DNA from: Candidatus Sulfotelmatobacter sp.
GTDB taxonomy: Bacteria > Acidobacteriota > Terriglobia > Terriglobales > SbA1
Assembly (NCBI GenBank): GCA_030151135.1
Contig: JASLEQ010000198.1
Location: forward strand, 1-33,153
Direction: 5' to 3'
Length of the DNA stretch: 33,153 nucleotides
Below, one piece after another: positions 10,362 through 20,886 of this stretch. The notes below the pieces were generated by a model, which was given only the letters and a program-made list of their open reading frames with translations, was not told the DNA's origin and ran no database searches. Each line of letters begins with the position of its first letter. Position 1 is the first letter of the stretch. Both the position numbers and the translations under genes were made by a program.

Positions 10362-11183
10362 ATGCAGAAAGCAGTCTCAACATATCTTTTTGTAAAAGAG
10401 CGGCTTCACCCCGGTATCCTCGATAGCCTGTCGCGCAGCGGCGTGGAGGCGATTGAGATTTTCGCCGCGCGCCAGCATCTCGACTACGCCAACCGCAAAC
10501 AGCACGTCAAAGAGATTGCCGAATGGTTCCGCGGTAGCGGCATCCCGCTGAACTCGGTGCATTCCCCTCTTTATGCGGATTACGAATGGGGACGCGCCGG
10601 CGCTCCTCCCGTGAACGTCGCTTCTACGGACCGTGCCGGCCGCATCGAAGCCATGGACGAAATCAAGCGCGCCCTCGAAATCGCCGAGCAGATCCCTTTC
10701 CGGTTCCTTGTGCAGCATCTGGGCACGCCCAACGAATCTTTCAGCGACAAGAAGTTCGAAGCGGCGATGACTTCGATCGAGCATTTGCGAGCTTTCGCCA
10801 AGCCTCTCGGCGTCAGCATTCTGCTCGAGAACATCCCCAACGAGCTTTCCACGCCTGATCACTTGGTCGAGATGATCCAGTTGGCGCACTTCGACGATGT
10901 CGGAGTCTGTTTTGACTTTGGCCATGCCCACATGATGAGTTCCGTTAGCGAATCATTCGAGATCGTGAAAAATCATATCCGCTCGACGCATGTCCACGAC
11001 AACGACCGGTTGAAGGACTCGCATCTGTGGCCAGGGCAGGGAACCATCGATTGGAAACAAGCCATGGAGCTATTTCGCTCCGCGCCGCAGAAACCGCCGC
11101 TCCTGCTCGAACTCGGAGAAGACGAGAAAGTGAATGCGCTGGAAAAGCTGGGCGAGACATTCGACAAGCTGGAAAGCGCATGA
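10362..11183 (+). CDS. Sugar phosphate isomerase/epimerase-like TIM-barrel protein
   Basis: The 273-residue protein belongs to the xylose isomerase-like TIM-barrel / AP endonuclease 2 superfamily. Likely metal ligands are in ILLENIPNE (Glu), VCFDFGHAHM (Asp, His), STHVHDND (His) and LLLELGEDE (Glu). Relatives are sugar isomerases, inosose dehydratases and hydroxypyruvate isomerases, as well as endonuclease IV. The short length and lack of the Nfo signature favour a sugar or inositol enzyme, but the substrate is unknown. AGGG precedes the ATG by 3 nt. It lies between ggt and asnS on the same strand with gaps of 102 and 81 nt. Confidence 0.85.
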   Translation: MQKAVSTYLFVKERLHPGILDSLSRSGVEAIEIFAARQHLDYANRKQHVKEIAEWFRGSGIPLNSVHSPLYADYEWGRAGAPPVNVASTDRAGRIEAMDEIKRALEIAEQIPFRFLVQHLGTPNESFSDKKFEAAMTSIEHLRAFAKPLGVSILLENIPNELSTPDHLVEMIQLAHFDDVGVCFDFGHAHMMSSVSESFEIVKNHIRSTHVHDNDRLKDSHLWPGQGTIDWKQAMELFRSAPQKPPLLLELGEDEKVNALEKLGETFDKLESA

Positions 11184-16940: not shown

Positions 16941-17660
16941 GTGCCCCGCACAGCCAATTTATCCGCCAAGTCCCTGACTAAAAGGCGATTCTTTCGCTCC
17001 CGTCTCGCAAGGCTCGCAGCCGCCGCACTCCTTGTTGTGGTCTGTCTTTGGTCGTTCGCCGTGCTGATCCTGATTGCGTCGAAATGGATCGATCCGCCGA
17101 CCACCGCCGTTCACATGCAGCGCCACTTCCAAGCCTGGATTCACAGCACCCCTTATCGGGAACACTACAAGTTCATTCCGCTCTCCCAAATCTCGCCGGA
17201 GCTTCAGCATGCTGTGATCGCTGCCGAGGATACCCGCTTCTACCAGCACGATGGATTCGATTGGGAGCAAATCGAAATTGCCGCGAAGGAAGATCTGGAA
17301 GGCGAACGCACTCGCGGTGCTTCCACCATTACGCAGCAACTGGTAAAGAATTTGTTTTTCGGTACGGGCCGCTCTATTCTCCGCAAAGGTGCAGAAGCCA
17401 CGCTGGTGCCCGTCGCCGAATTTGTCCTTGGCAAGCGCCGGATCCTGGAAATCTACCTCAACGTCGTCGAATGGGGCCCGGCCGTGTACGGCGCGGAAGC
17501 AGCTTGTGAGCACTACGACAAAGTCCCGGCTAGAAATATCAGGCGTGAACAAGCCGCTCGGCTCGCGGCAATTCTTCCGGCTCCTCTGAAGCGCCGTCCT
17601 GAGCGCATGAACAGCTACAGCCTGATTATCCTGAAACGCATGGACCAGATGGGCTGGTAG
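16941..17660 (+). CDS. mtgA: Monofunctional biosynthetic peptidoglycan glycosyltransferase
   Basis: Inner-membrane GT51 enzyme that polymerises lipid II into glycan strands. A short basic N-terminus is followed by one membrane segment (about 26-47, AAAALLVVVCLWSFAVLILIA). The catalytic domain shows AVIAAEDTRFYQHDGFDW with catalytic Glu96, then RGASTITQQLVKNLFF and KRRILEIYLNVVEWG. There is no transpeptidase domain; the 239-residue length is typical of MtgA. The start is a GTG at 16941; the codon choice is inferred because no ATG occurs before the membrane segment. The SAM-I leader promoter begins 60 nt after its stop. Confidence 0.94.
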   Translation: MPRTANLSAKSLTKRRFFRSRLARLAAAALLVVVCLWSFAVLILIASKWIDPPTTAVHMQRHFQAWIHSTPYREHYKFIPLSQISPELQHAVIAAEDTRFYQHDGFDWEQIEIAAKEDLEGERTRGASTITQQLVKNLFFGTGRSILRKGAEATLVPVAEFVLGKRRILEIYLNVVEWGPAVYGAEAACEHYDKVPARNIRREQAARLAAILPAPLKRRPERMNSYSLIILKRMDQMGW

Positions 17661-17720
17661 CCTTAGCCCTTCGTGGTTAGTAGCTTTCGTGGCTATGTGG
17701 CCGTTTGCCCCAGCTTCCCC

Positions 17721-17750
17721 TTGACTCAGCATGCGCCGCTTCTGTACCAT
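17721..17750 (+). promoter_or_regulatory. Sigma-70-type promoter of the SAM-I leader
   Basis: TTGACT (-35) and TACCAT (-10) are separated by 18 nt. The start site would be near 17757, about 40 nt before the riboswitch P1 stem. Confidence 0.55.
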
Positions 17751-17795
17751 GCAAAGAACAAGTTCGCTCTTTGGCGGTAGCCGATGGGCGGACCT

Positions 17796-17913
17796 GAATT
17801 TCATGCAGAGTGGCTGAGGGACGAGCCCTGAGACGCCACGGCAACCGATTCAGGATCATATATCCCGAATGTCTGGTGCCAACTCTCTCCTGGAAGCAGG
17901 GAACATGGGATTC
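17796..17913 (+). promoter_or_regulatory. SAM-I riboswitch (S-box)
   Basis: S-adenosylmethionine-binding RNA that normally shuts off methionine or SAM supply genes when SAM is high. P1 pairs GAATTTCATG (17796-17805) with CATGGGATTC (17904-17913), 10 pairs with two G-U. The P2 region GGCTGAGGGACGAGCCCTGA carries the kink-turn. The conserved CGGCAACC and GGTGCCAACTC match the S-box core, with P3 between them (GATTCAGG... / CCCGAATGTC). A P4-like CCTG-GAAG-CAGG precedes the 3' P1 arm. The downstream gene is thrC-like, with a ThiS-like partner. Confidence 0.92.
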
Positions 17914-17942
17914 GGCAAGCGCGCTGTATTTGCTTTCCGACA

Positions 17943-17998
17943 GCCTCTTTTCCTTTTCCTGGAAAAAGAGGCCATTTGTTTTTATGGCCACTTTTTCC
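17943..17998 (+). terminator. Expression platform: terminator and overlapping alternative hairpin
   Basis: Hairpin 1 pairs GCCTCTTTTCC (17943-17953) with GGAAAAAGAGGC (17961-17972), followed by CATTTGTTTTTA, a U-rich tail. Hairpin 2 pairs GGAAAAAGAGGCCAT (17961-17975) with ATGGCCACTTTTTCC (17984-17998), 14 of 15 pairs. Both use the 17961-17972 arm, so they exclude each other. This is the layout expected of a transcription-controlling switch. Confidence 0.7.
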
Positions 17999-18053
17999 GG
18001 CTCGTCCTCAGCTATTCGCATAGTTCGGCGCGATTTGTGGAATCTTTGCGCGA

Positions 18054-18195
18054 TTTGAAAGGGCACGGCTTTAAGCCGTGCCGTAAAAGCGACCGGAGGA
18101 ATGCGGCTTCAGCCGCTGAGGGAACGTTACCTCGCGGCCTGAAGGCCGATTGATCTCGGTCTGGACGGCGCGGCTGGAAGCCGCGCCCTTTCAAA
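18054..18195. repeat. Inverted pair of REP-like elements (REPIN-like), copies C and C2
   Basis: Copy C (18054-18125) reads TTTGAAAGGGCACGG... through a TTTAA-centred hairpin, a linker and a GCGGCTTCAGCCGC hairpin, ending GAGGGAAC. Copy C2 (18126-18195) is the same layout on the opposite strand, ending CCGCGCCCTTTCAAAA. The two meet at AACGTT (18123-18128), making a 142-nt imperfect palindrome inside the riboswitch leader. Confidence 0.75.
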
Positions 18196-18237
18196 ACAAA
18201 CAACGGCTTCCGATCACCAAAAGAAAGCGAGTAGCTC

Positions 18238-19536
18238 ATGTCTCACTACGAATTGCGATGCCGCGAATGCGGACGGACTTGGGGAAACCAGCCCCGCTCC
18301 ATCTGCGACGATTGTTTCTCCCCCCTGGAAGTCGCTTACGATTACGACGCGCTGAAAGCGTCGATTAGCCGTGAGCGCATCTCGGCGCGGCCTCCAAACA
18401 TGTGGCGCTACTCCGATCTGTTGCCCCTCCCCCAGGGCTATGAACCGCGGTTGCCGGTCGGCTTCACCCCCCTGTTCCAGGCTCCACGGCTGGCACAGAA
18501 GCTGACCGGTACGGCGGCTCGGAATCTCTACATCAAGAACGACGCCGTCTGCCTGCCGACGCTGAGTTTCAAGGATCGTGTCGTCGCCGTTGCGCTGGCG
18601 AATGCCCGCGAGTTCGGATTCGACACGGTGTCGTGCTCTTCGACCGGCAATCTGGCGAACGCCGTTGCGGCGCACGCTGCTCGTGAAGGCCTGAAGGCGT
18701 GGATCTTCATTCCGTCTGATCTAGAGCCCGCGAAGATTCTCGGCACGAATGTGTTCGGCGCGAAGGTCGTCCGCATCGCCGGCAATTACGACCAGGTGAA
18801 CCGCCTCTGCTCGCAGATCGCCGACGAACATCGCTGGGGATTCGTCAACGTCAACCTGCGGCCCTACTATGCGGAAGGATCGAAAACGGTGGGATTCGAA
18901 ATCGCCGAACAACTCGGTTGGCGCCTCCCTGATAACATCGTCTGCCCGATGGCCGGCGGATCGCTGATCACCAAAATCAAGAAAGCGTTCGACGAGCTGA
19001 TCAAGCTCGGGCTGGTCGAACCGAAAGATGTGAAGTTCTTCGGGGCGCAGGCGACTGGATGCTCGCCAATTTCGACCGCAGTGAAAACCGGAAGCTCTGA
19101 AATCGAGCCACAGAAGCCGAACACAATTGCGCGCTCGCTCGCCATCGGAAATCCCGCCGACGGTCACTACGCCATCAAGACCATCAAGAACAGCGGCGGA
19201 TGGAGCGAAGACGTGAGCGATCCCGAGGTTGTCGATTCGATCCGACTCCTCGCCGAGAGCGAAGGAATCTTCACCGAAACCGCTGGCGGTGTCACCGTCG
19301 GCTGCGCTGGCAAGCTGTATCGCCAAGATCGCATTCTTCCCGAGGAAACCACCGTTCTTTGCGTCACCGGCAACGGTTTGAAGACGACCGATGTTCTCGC
19401 GGGCGTCTACAAAACGGAGCGTCCGATCGCGCCGAAGCTTACGGAGTTTGAAGCGTACCTGCAGCAGACGCTCGATGTAGATAAGGTTCCCGAGGTCATC
19501 GCCGCAGCAGAGCACATCGAAGCGATAGGAGCGTAA
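18238..19536 (+). CDS. Threonine-synthase-family PLP enzyme under SAM-I riboswitch control; possible homocysteine-forming sulfhydrylase
   Basis: Fold-type II PLP enzyme, 432 residues, most like threonine synthase, which converts O-phosphohomoserine to threonine. An N-terminal zinc-ribbon-like segment has Cys8, Cys11, Cys23 and Cys26. The PLP lysine is Lys112 in CLPTLSFKDR, and the loop differs from the NPTGSFKDR common in bacterial and archaeal ThrC. SSTGNLANAVAAHA and the phosphate loop MAGGSLITKI follow. A SAM-I riboswitch upstream and a ThiS/MoaD-like gene 1 nt downstream suggest that it adds sulfur from a protein thiocarboxylate to an activated homoserine, like CysM with CysO. Plain threonine synthase remains possible. 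The ribosome-binding site is weak. Confidence 0.85.
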   Translation: MSHYELRCRECGRTWGNQPRSICDDCFSPLEVAYDYDALKASISRERISARPPNMWRYSDLLPLPQGYEPRLPVGFTPLFQAPRLAQKLTGTAARNLYIKNDAVCLPTLSFKDRVVAVALANAREFGFDTVSCSSTGNLANAVAAHAAREGLKAWIFIPSDLEPAKILGTNVFGAKVVRIAGNYDQVNRLCSQIADEHRWGFVNVNLRPYYAEGSKTVGFEIAEQLGWRLPDNIVCPMAGGSLITKIKKAFDELIKLGLVEPKDVKFFGAQATGCSPISTAVKTGSSEIEPQKPNTIARSLAIGNPADGHYAIKTIKNSGGWSEDVSDPEVVDSIRLLAESEGIFTETAGGVTVGCAGKLYRQDRILPEETTVLCVTGNGLKTTDVLAGVYKTERPIAPKLTEFEAYLQQTLDVDKVPEVIAAAEHIEAIGA

Positions 19537-19537
19537 G

Positions 19538-19819
19538 ATGCCGATCACTGTACAAATTCCAACTGCGCTACGCCGTCATACGGACGGCGTAGCCTCCGTC
19601 AGTTTCAGCGCCACGAACCTGAATGAACTGTTTTCGGCTCTCGACGAAAAGTTCCCCGAACTCAAGCCGCACCTGCGCGATGACAAAGGCCAGATCCGCC
19701 GCTTCCTCAACATCTACGTCAACGAGGAAGACATCCGTTTTCTCGGCGGCCCGTCGTACGCGTTTCAGGAAGGCGATGAAATCCTGCTCGTACCCTCTAT
19801 CGCCGGCGGAAAAAAATAG
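19538..19819 (+). CDS. ThiS/MoaD-like ubiquitin-fold sulfur carrier protein with GGKK tail
   Basis: The 93-residue protein has a beta-grasp pattern: VTVQIPTALRRHTDG at the start, then LNELFSALDEKFPELKPHLRD, LNIYVNEEDIRFLGG and EGDEILLVPSIAGGKK. Sulfur carriers end in Gly-Gly, which an E1-like enzyme adenylates and thiocarboxylates. Here two Lys follow, so a protease (JAMM/Mec+-type or other) would have to trim them first. No E1-like or protease gene is visible nearby. It begins 1 nt after the PLP enzyme's stop with AGGAG inside that gene's end, indicating translational coupling. It could instead serve molybdopterin or thiamine synthesis, but those genes are absent here. Confidence 0.88.
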   Translation: MPITVQIPTALRRHTDGVASVSFSATNLNELFSALDEKFPELKPHLRDDKGQIRRFLNIYVNEEDIRFLGGPSYAFQEGDEILLVPSIAGGKK

Positions 19820-19837
19820 GTTCGAAACAGCGCTGAC

Positions 19838-19905
19838 TTGAAAGGGCTCGGCTTCAGCCGAGCCGTAAGGCATCGCGAACGGCAGGGCTTCAGCCCCTGA
19901 GATCA
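19838..19905 (+). repeat. REP-like bipartite palindromic element, copy B
   Basis: Hairpin GGCTCGGCTTCAGCCGAGCC, then GTAAGGC, a linker, and a second hairpin GGGCTTCAGCCC followed by CTGAGATCA. It has the same layout and flanks as copies A and C. Its last bases overlap the stop codon of the convergent deacetylase gene (TCA at 19903-19905). Confidence 0.7.
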
Positions 19906-20886
19906 CTGCGTCGGTTCAGCGCTGACCTGGCCTGTCGACTGATGTAACTCCCTGGCCCTCTGAATCACCCACTCCGGAAACTTCGGCGCGCCCTGCGGAA
20001 TCTTCCCCTGCGTAATCGCCCAATGATCCAGCCACCCCGTGCCCTCTTCGCCGACATACGTGTCGGGCAAGCTGTAAGCCGGATCCTCCAGCGCGTCCCC
20101 CAGCGTGATGAACCGGTACCCACGCTTCCTCAGCACATCCATCAATTCGCCAATATGATCCGCTTCGAGATTGCTGGCATGCAGTAGCAGAATCTGCTTC
20201 GGTTCATATCCCACAACCTTCACCGAAAGTTGCTCGTCGTACGCAAACACTGCATCGTGATACGACAAATATTCCTTCACGATCTTCTGCTGCAAATCGG
20301 TATCGTTCCGCGCCTTCGCATCTTCATACAGCCCGGCAAACATCCAGTCCCAGCCATCCAGCGTGATCGGAGCGATCCTGTATCCTCGCTGCGTCAGAAA
20401 CGCTTCGGCCTCGCGCCGCGTCTGCAAATCGCGCCCCGTATCCAGATACGGATGCCGCAAATACCGCATCTTCATCTTGTGCGTTGCCATCAGCATGTTC
20501 GTGACAGTCTCGCCGCGAATCACATCTTCTTCCCACGCTTTCAGTCCAACCTGATTCAACGAAGAATGCGCGTAGGTGTGATTCCCCAGCTCAAAGCCAT
20601 AATCCAACCACATCTGCAACGCTTTGATCCGTTCGTCCACTTGGCCCGGTTTATACAGCTTCTTCTCATTCACGAATCCGACCACCGGGATTTTCTGATC
20701 CCGCAACGTGCCCAGCAACTTCGCCGTAAGCGCGGTGATGTCAGCGGCCGGAAGTTTGTCGGCCATACCCGACGGCAGATCGTCAATCGTCACCGCAACT
20801 TGGCGGTCTACCTTCGGCGCCTGCGCCATCAAACCCAGGCACATCATTTCGAACACGCAAATCAGTAAGAATCCTGCCCGTTTCAT
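19903..20886 (-). CDS. Exported polysaccharide deacetylase-family protein
   Basis: The 327-residue protein has a signal peptide (MKRAGFLLICVFEMMCLGLMAQA) and a NodB-like deacetylase domain. Asp35-Asp36 (VTIDDLPSG), His103 and His107 (GNHTYAHSSL) and RHPYLDTG are the metal and catalytic motifs of carbohydrate esterase family 4. These enzymes remove N- or O-acetyl groups from chitin, peptidoglycan or exopolysaccharide. The substrate here is unknown. I start at the ATG at 20886, where GAGGT lies 5 nt upstream and the signal peptide begins. Its stop codon lies within a REP-like element. It is divergent from the DUF72 gene. Confidence 0.9.
   Translation of the reverse strand: MKRAGFLLICVFEMMCLGLMAQAPKVDRQVAVTIDDLPSGMADKLPAADITALTAKLLGTLRDQKIPVVGFVNEKKLYKPGQVDERIKALQMWLDYGFELGNHTYAHSSLNQVGLKAWEEDVIRGETVTNMLMATHKMKMRYLRHPYLDTGRDLQTRREAEAFLTQRGYRIAPITLDGWDWMFAGLYEDAKARNDTDLQQKIVKEYLSYHDAVFAYDEQLSVKVVGYEPKQILLLHASNLEADHIGELMDVLRKRGYRFITLGDALEDPAYSLPDTYVGEEGTGWLDHWAITQGKIPQGAPKFPEWVIQRARELHQSTGQVSAEPTQ

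What the first reader, a model, noticed from the sequence alone, without database searches (positions are those of the whole stretch)
17721..19819. SAM-I riboswitch controls a threonine-synthase-like enzyme and a ThiS/MoaD-like protein: possible thiocarboxylate-based homocysteine synthesis
A S-box with paired P1 and conserved core precedes the thrC-like gene. SAM-I switches normally turn off methionine or SAM supply, which makes no obvious sense for threonine synthesis. The PLP enzyme shares its fold type with CysM and uses a phosphorylated substrate. Its lysine loop (CLPTLSFKDR) differs from the common NPTGSFKDR. A ubiquitin-like sulfur carrier gene follows at 1 nt. CysO/CysM/Mec+ (Mycobacterium) and HcyS/HcyD (Wolinella) are precedents for protein thiocarboxylates as sulfur donors. 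The idea that the enzyme makes homocysteine from O-phosphohomoserine is inference.
Basis: partly seen in the sequence, partly recalled or inferred. Interest (0 to 1): 0.78.

Follow-up and report, generated by a model that had tools for sequence, protein, structure and literature searches.

The report
SAM-switched thiocarboxylate homocysteine synthase pair (MetM/MetO)
A soil Acidobacteriota genome fragment carries an RNA switch for S-adenosylmethionine in front of a threonine-synthase look-alike and a ubiquitin-like sulfur carrier, which very probably make the methionine precursor homocysteine, as the MetM/MetO pair reported from Streptomyces in 2024 does.

Summary
A SAM-I riboswitch (17798-17911, 66 bits) and a terminator-like hairpin precede a threonine-synthase-like gene (18238-19536); a ThiS/MoaD-family sulfur carrier follows after 1 nt (19538-19819). 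The order recurs in Acidobacteriota: SAM-I in 75 and carrier in 75 of 80 related loci. In 24 relatives the usual threonine synthase is a separate gene, beside thrB in 20 of 21 copies fetched. MetX, MetA and the DUF39 enzyme are all undetected in 21 of 24. In the tree the window protein falls in a clade tied to SAM-I and/or the carrier, with an actinomycete that has the same three parts. Two relatives have one operon: SAM-I, E1-like enzyme, cysteine desulfurase, synthase, carrier. It is also known in kind: MetM/MetO of Streptomyces (Hasebe et al. 2024), whose metM has an upstream SAM riboswitch according to a citing paper whose passages I read. New here: the acidobacterial anatomy, the five-part operon, and carriers that mostly do not end in the reactive Gly-Gly (window: GGKK), which implies trimming. 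No activity was measured; the window's genome is not held.

The parts
17721..17750 (+). promoter-like site (TTGACT, 18 nt, TACCAT), weak
   Evidence: consensus scan, 9 of 12 matches; 2 sites found on both strands of 17600-20000 against a mean of 0.6 in shuffles; not evidence of function by itself
17798..17911 (+). SAM-I (S-box) riboswitch aptamer
   Evidence: RF00162 66.4 bits, E 1.5e-13; covarying helices in 66 distinct sequences
17942..17983 (+). intrinsic-terminator-like hairpin (-15.0 kcal/mol) with T-rich tail: the likely expression platform
   Evidence: own scan: such a hairpin in 65 of 76 leaders against 120 of 380 shuffles; the stricter tool scan did not list it, only an overlapping hairpin at 17970-17989, with no excess over shuffles; unliganded MFE fold pairs its 5' side with the aptamer's 3' part
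18054..18195 (.). REPIN-like palindromic insertion inside the leader, not part of the switch
   Evidence: 31-nt arms 87% complementary; core motif found 3 times in the window against 0.01 expected
18238..19536 (+). MetM-like PLP enzyme: probable O-phosphohomoserine-dependent homocysteine synthase
   Evidence: TIGR00260 268 bits; tree clade tied to SAM-I/carrier; clade-specific residues
19538..19819 (+). MetO-like ubiquitin-fold sulfur carrier, ends ...PSIAGGKK
   Evidence: PF02597 43.7 bits; CysO 3dwg_C 73.6 bits; downstream of MetM in 75 of 80 relatives

Best explanation
This is an acidobacterial MetM/MetO locus: a SAM-repressed, protein-thiocarboxylate route to homocysteine. Homoserine kinase (ThrB, elsewhere) makes O-phosphohomoserine. 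The carrier's C-terminal cap (KK here) is removed to expose Gly-Gly. An E1-like enzyme adenylates the glycine and a cysteine desulfurase supplies sulfur, giving MetO-COSH. MetM, a PLP enzyme derived from a threonine synthase, eliminates phosphate from O-phosphohomoserine and lets the thiocarboxylate add at the gamma carbon; hydrolysis releases homocysteine, then methionine and SAM are made. SAM binding to the S-box stabilises the aptamer, frees the terminator and shuts the operon off. Shown here by sequence: the parts, their order, their conservation, the separate thrB-linked ThrC of relatives, and the missing acyl-homoserine route in most of them. Inferred: the chemistry, the trimming, the partners in this genome and the sign of the switch.
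For: Riboswitch; terminator-like platform; order conserved; separate thrC beside thrB in 20 of 21 fetched, thrB confirmed at 216.6 bits over 168 in the one typed; MetX 1 of 24, MetA 2 of 24, DUF39 0 of 24; anticorrelation with MetX in 119 genomes; clade of 40 rows with the actinomycete Nonomuraea, support 97/88, whose gene also has SAM-I upstream (68.7 bits) and a carrier ending in GG downstream; two operons SAM-I, E1, cysteine desulfurase, MetM, MetO; a second SAM-I upstream of a cysteine desulfurase in 3 of 24 genomes; E1 of the same type (at least 53% identity) in 21 of 24; published MetM with SAM riboswitch (PMC12172450, passages).
Against: No activity data. NCBIfam's thrC equivalog model calls the protein threonine synthase above its cut-off. 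Microcystis ThrC, 51.6% identical to S. albulus MetM, makes threonine (PMC12172450), and a sister clade of 10 rows has 4 beside thrB and 3 with SAM-I, so family resemblance or SAM-I alone does not prove the function. G018 has metM-metO without SAM-I. In the phylum sample 6 of 21 MetM-clade genomes lack SAM-I, and 28 of 46 SAM-I genomes have no MetM-family hit. G024 also has MetX, G004 and G009 MetA. PF01053 enzymes are in 24 of 24. G001 lacks a detected M67 protease; G005, G011 and G015 lack this E1. 59 of 119 genomes have neither a MetM-family gene nor MetX, so other routes or gaps exist. Nonomuraea sits on a long branch, so its exact place in the clade is unsure.
Confidence: 0.87

Rival explanations
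1. A second, SAM-regulated threonine synthase; the carrier beside it serves something else.
For: Passes the thrC equivalog cut-off; close family members are thrB-linked (sister clade); a cyanobacterial relative has ThrC activity (PMC12172450, passages); G011 and G015 have no other thrC above the cut-off.
Against: A separate thrB-linked ThrC in most relatives; a SAM-off switch on a threonine gene would drain O-phosphohomoserine when SAM is low (reasoning); the carrier is conserved beside it; clade-specific residues in the lysine loop and at S215, K246, G269.
Confidence: 0.06
2. Homocysteine is made by a cystathionine gamma-synthase-type PF01053 enzyme using O-phosphohomoserine, as plants do (recalled), and metM/metO is auxiliary.
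For: PF01053 genes in 24 of 24 genomes; MetX and MetA mostly absent, so such an enzyme would need another activated homoserine.
Against: The typed copy beside cysK fits cystathionine gamma-lyase/homocysteine desulfhydrase best (507 bits, below its cut-off of 594), which suggests the reverse direction; of the 26 over-cut-off SAM-I sites in the 24 genomes, 23 precede the MetM-like gene and 3 a desulfurase, none a PF01053 gene.
Confidence: 0.04
3. The pair makes another sulfur compound (for example cysteine) rather than homocysteine.
For: The carrier's best solved relative is CysO, which feeds cysteine synthesis.
Against: Relatives have a further ThiS-family gene beside cysK/cysM-like and M67 genes; the enzyme is closest to ThrC, not to CysM; SAM-I control fits methionine.
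Confidence: 0.03

Closest known systems
MetM/MetO of Streptomyces (Hasebe, Adachi, Maruyama, Hamano 2024, AEM 90:e01247-24; paper not held, content recalled; passages of the citing paper PMC12172450 read)
   Same: threonine-synthase-like enzyme plus downstream sulfur carrier (recalled), SAM riboswitch upstream (PMC12172450), canonical homocysteine genes missing in many strains (recalled)
   Different: another phylum; carrier ends in GGKK rather than GG (the actinomycete Nonomuraea ends in GG); in two acidobacterial relatives the operon also holds an E1 and a cysteine desulfurase; activity not tested here
CysM/CysO/Mec+ of Mycobacterium (PMC3227635, passages)
   Same: phosphorylated amino-acid substrate, protein thiocarboxylate as sulfur donor; the carrier is CysO-like
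   Different: makes cysteine from O-phosphoserine with a CysM-type enzyme; this locus has a ThrC-type enzyme, no protease gene found in the window, and SAM-I control
HcyS/HcyD route of Wolinella (Krishnamoorthy and Begley 2011; not held; named in the passages of PMC5764234 only as the protein thiocarboxylate pathway; details recalled)
   Same: thiocarboxylate-dependent homocysteine synthesis; a carrier with a residue after Gly-Gly that needs removal (recalled)
   Different: recalled to use an acetylhomoserine-type sulfhydrylase, not a ThrC-type enzyme
Threonine synthase ThrC (1uim, 2d1f)
   Same: same PLP family, O-phosphohomoserine as likely substrate, 162.7 bits to 1uim
   Different: lysine loop NPTGSFKDR against LPTLSFKDR; the acidobacterial ThrC copies are thrB-linked, without SAM-I or carrier label

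Membership tests
MetM/MetO | ThrC-family PLP enzyme | tested here: met
   TIGR00260 268 bits
MetM/MetO | sulfur carrier gene directly downstream | tested here: met
   1 nt downstream; 75 of 80 relatives
MetM/MetO | SAM riboswitch upstream, as for S. albulus metM | tested here: met
MetM/MetO | groups with an actinomycete MetM rather than with thrB-linked ThrC | tested here: inconclusive
   groups with Nonomuraea, which has SAM-I and carrier but is itself unassayed and on a long branch; the Streptomyces MetM sequence was not at hand
MetM/MetO | carrier with reactive C-terminal Gly-Gly | tested here: inconclusive
   GG present but followed by KK in the window; 6 of 74 relatives end in GG
MetM/MetO | canonical homocysteine route missing in the genome | tested here: inconclusive
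   own genome not held; MetX, MetA and DUF39 enzyme undetected in 21 of 24 relatives
MetM/MetO | homocysteine from O-phosphohomoserine and MetO-COSH | not testable with these tools
   needs an assay
SAM-I riboswitch RF00162 | score above gathering, conserved core and pairing | tested here: met
   66.4 against 44.4 bits; covariation
SAM-I riboswitch RF00162 | SAM binding and off-switching | not testable with these tools
   needs probing and transcription assays
Threonine synthase ThrC (function) | linked to thrB or sole thrC of the genome | tested here: not met
   no thrB in the window by tblastn; separate thrB-linked ThrC in 20 relatives; own genome not held
CysM/CysO/Mec+ | CysM-type enzyme and M67 protease beside the carrier | tested here: not met
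   best solved matches are ThrC; no CysK- or M67-like gene in the window by tblastn with relatives' proteins
HcyS/HcyD | HcyD-like M67 protease gene in the locus | tested here: not met
   none in the window; one elsewhere in 23 of 24 relatives

The most novel reading that the evidence does not exclude
In Acidobacteriota the MetO carrier is made as a capped precursor (GG plus 1-3 variable residues, or a longer, in some genera Cys-rich, tail) that cannot be charged until an M67/JAB protease shared with the CysO system trims it, and SAM switches off the sulfur relay itself (E1 and cysteine desulfurase) along with MetM/MetO. Methionine and cysteine synthesis would then compete for one protease, and the Cys-rich tails could sense metal or redox state.
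Probability: 0.3. Interest if true: 0.62.

Novelty: new member of a known kind. Interest (0 to 1): 0.42.

Why it matters
Many of the Acidobacteriota examined look unable to make homocysteine by textbook genes, and their gene is annotated as a threonine synthase. Calling it MetM fills that gap and corrects a mis-annotation. It gives the anatomy, in another phylum, of a pathway reported in 2024, and suggests which E1 and desulfurase charge the carrier. The capped carriers raise a testable question on how the thiocarboxylate is made.

Tried and rejected
Whole-genome test in the window's own genome: not possible, none is held; relatives were used. A further plasmid search with the acidobacterial ThrC did not list Nonomuraea among its ten rows. 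The Streptomyces MetM sequence could not be obtained. Hasebe 2024 and Krishnamoorthy and Begley 2011 are not held. My first MetM-MetX test counted all 31 P0001 hits (3 observed against 8.3 expected, p=0.017); the tree then showed that 10 belong to a thrB-like sister clade, so the count was redone on 21, after seeing the data. My riboswitch regex missed sites that Rfam finds (G035, G060, G119, G047, G069), so tree labels understate linkage. In one search two rows nearest ThrC at 31-39% identity (L199, and a second ORF of L232) have no thrB label; both were left out of the ThrC set. The shuffles are a simple home-made kind that falls back to the original sequence when it fails, which can only raise the control. 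Promoter scan: weak, not used. That the PF01053 genes are conventional sulfhydrylases was not borne out: of 6 typed, only the Granulicella aggregans one passes a cut-off among the 25 families shown.

Papers: PMC12172450, PMC5764234, PMC3227635 and PMC12452182 were read in passages only; the other papers were seen as listings only. PMC12452182 reports T-box, not SAM-I, control of Bacillota thrC in its passages. No paper of the held library has 'SAM riboswitch', 'Acidobacteri' and 'threonine' together (0 papers); others (1 paper; 10 papers) list none whose title or abstract start describes this locus; most subscription papers are not in that library.
Full report
What is there. Rfam's SAM-I model matches 17798-17911 over its full length at 66.4 bits. 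A 432-aa threonine-synthase-like ORF starts at 18238 and a 93-aa ThiS/MoaD-family ORF follows after one base. Upstream lies a peptidoglycan transglycosylase gene and downstream, on the other strand, a polysaccharide deacetylase gene, so the unit is two genes and a leader. No relative's E1, desulfurase, thrB, CysK, MetX, cystathionine-lyase-type or M67 protein matches anywhere in the window at E 1e-3. The genome contigs relatives by title are all Acidobacteriota (Terriglobia types; L001, a Candidatus Sulfotelmatobacter MAG, 93%). In the protein search closer proteins exist (97-100%), one of them named by its source as Candidatus Eisenbacteria, probably a misplaced MAG.

Conservation. One scan of genome contigs gave 80 loci (the best 80 of 157 confirmed). 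The carrier lies downstream in 75 of 80, within 0.3 kb in 74 and at 1.5 kb in L074; in L012 it is frameshifted. Of the five without, L046 ends 5 bases after the gene and L073 has 545 bases left; L054 has a remnant; L031 (5 kb) and L032 (1.2 kb) show none. SAM-I lies upstream in 75 of 80 (the model was built from 28 sequences, many from these genomes; L042 is a partial and L025 a weaker match). Of the five without, L020, L053, L070 and L074 have 0-191 bases upstream, and only L071 has the room and lacks it. With Rfam's own model 23 of 24 whole genomes (those of 24 of the 80 loci) have SAM-I, in all 23 one just upstream of the MetM-like gene. Helix pairs covary: 12 pairs with changes on both sides, 128 such cells against 31.8 in shuffles (the alignment is fitted to the structure and leans towards it).

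Control logic. A GCCTCTTTTCC...GGAAAAAGAGGC hairpin with a T-rich tail follows the aptamer at 17942-17983 (-15.0 kcal/mol). A hairpin of at most -8 kcal/mol before a U-rich stretch occurs in 65 of 76 leaders and in 120 of 380 shuffles. The simpler tool scan, with its 3-8 nt loop limit, listed only an overlapping hairpin at 17970-17989 and no excess over shuffles. The MFE fold of 17798-17990 without ligand pairs the aptamer's 3' part with the terminator's 5' side (z -1.9, 6 of 200 shuffles fold as well). This is the usual S-box off arrangement; the sign is inferred. The window's leader (326 nt from aptamer to gene, the longest of 76) is stretched by a 142-nt palindromic insertion.

Not the housekeeping threonine synthase. 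In 24 relatives TIGR00260 passes its cut-off two or more times in 22; G011 and G015 show only the MetM-like copy. I fetched the other copy of 21 genomes: 20 have thrB within 700 bases; that of G018 is a distant ThrC form (28% identity) with no thrB seen; G001's fragment was not fetched. A further PRK08197-type copy (535 bits, cut-off 303, in the one typed) was fetched from 14 genomes. In an 87-row tree (20 of the 80 loci, the phylum sample and the other copies) the thrB-linked ThrC, the PRK08197 type and the MetM family separate (the tool warns of long branches, Nonomuraea's among them). The MetM family splits into a clade of 40 rows (97/88), 36 of them labelled with SAM-I or the carrier and holding the window and Nonomuraea, and a sister of 10 rows, 4 beside thrB and 1 labelled SAM-I. 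Rfam shows SAM-I before two more of the sister clade (G047, G069) and before three of the four unlabelled rows of the main clade (G035, G060, G119). So the family as such does not prove the function; clade and context do the work. Clade-wide residues are S215, K246 and G269 (100 of 100 rows), which are Q, A and mostly V in ThrC; Nonomuraea shares 8 of 13 listed positions, these three included.

No other route in most relatives. MetX: 1 of 24 (G024, 366.9 bits, beside a MetY; the next best is 157 bits; none of the 14 control genomes reaches that model's cut-off of 500 either). MetA: 2 of 24 (G004, G009), each beside a PF01053 gene. DUF39: 0 of 24, with 3 of 14 control genomes ringing. So 21 of 24 lack all three. 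PF01053 enzymes are in all 24; of six typed, one passes a curated cut-off. In 119 Acidobacteriota (at least 90% completeness was asked for, none was reported back), MetM-clade genomes have MetX in 1 of 21 against 31 of 98 others (p=0.013) and a SAM-I somewhere in 15 of 21 against 31 of 98 (p=0.001) (one of the 46 SAM-I genomes, G136, is below the Rfam cut-off). Of those 15, 13 have it within 0.5 kb upstream of the gene and 2 at about 2.3 kb, at the head of the operon. Relatedness is not corrected for.

The sulfur relay. In G042 and G135, two related genomes, the SAM-I (84.6 and 85.3 bits) heads one tight run of genes: ThiF/MoeB-like E1 (378 and 365 bits to PRK12475, below its cut-off of 510), a cysteine desulfurase-family protein (TIGR01977, 413.8 and 425.8 bits, cut-off 377), MetM, MetO. 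In G119 the same type of E1 lies just upstream of SAM-I and MetM. In 3 of 24 Terriglobia a second SAM-I precedes a NifS/IscS-like desulfurase (442-453 bits to NifS, cut-off 531). E1 proteins of the same type (at least 53% identity) are in 21 of 24, at places other than the metM locus. In the literature E1 adenylation followed by sulfur from a cysteine desulfurase or rhodanese is how MoaD becomes a thiocarboxylate, and CysM uses O-phosphoserine and CysO-COSH, with Mec+ releasing cysteine (PMC3227635, passages).

The carrier's end. Of 74 carrier ORFs 6 end in Gly-Gly; 47 have two further residues, 6 one, 4 three, 10 nine to 29, and one has ambiguous bases. Four have Cys-rich tails, three of them in named isolates (Acidobacterium sp. 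S8, Paracidobacterium, Silvibacterium). CysO-like proteins of five of the relatives also carry extra residues, Aliarcobacter's ends in GGI with an M67 peptidase gene nearby, and Nonomuraea's two end in GG. M67/JAB genes are in 23 of 24, within 2 kb of a ThiS-family gene in 13 of these (positions). Trimming is therefore likely but inferred.

Verdict. I file the locus as a member of the MetM/MetO kind on anatomy, with its chemistry untested.

Noticed in passing
18054-18195 and 19840-19901: REPIN-like palindromic repeats (GAAAGGGCNCGGCTT cores), two facing each other inside the metM leader after the terminator and one downstream of metO; 3 cores in the window, exact cores in 5 of 285 loci.
   Followed up: partly
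L068, L069, L075, L077 (end of the metO ORF): Carrier proteins with a cysteine-rich C-terminal tail after Gly-Gly (e.g. ...GGCCTKGECRCCSYCGAEECRCDL), similar across genera; meaning unknown.
   Followed up: partly
L174 4822-6242, L175 4928-6354, L176 2530-3943: SAM-I riboswitch directly before a NifS/IscS-like cysteine desulfurase gene.
   Followed up: partly
L235 1078-5205, L236 1060-5111: One SAM-I operon with E1, cysteine desulfurase, MetM and MetO.
   Followed up: yes
L223, L228, L232, L253: Sister clade of MetM beside thrB: probably the true threonine synthase of other Acidobacteriota.
   Followed up: partly
L167 4065-5351 and 13 other rows: A further threonine-synthase-like paralog (PRK08197 type) in Terriglobia genomes, without thrB or carrier nearby; function unknown.
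   Followed up: no
L284 1032-8261: Aliarcobacter plasmid with cysteine synthase, M67 peptidase, MoaD/ThiS protein, rhodanese and a family 2A encapsulin with cysteine desulfurase cargo.
   Followed up: no
window 10362-11183: TIM-barrel protein with weak similarity to the cobamide-remodelling enzyme CbiR (49 bits, cut-off 105).
   Followed up: no
P0006 and P0029 (protein search): A 98% identical protein is named as Candidatus Eisenbacteria and another at 93% (P0029) as Candidatus Udaeobacter, probably misassigned MAG contigs.
   Followed up: no
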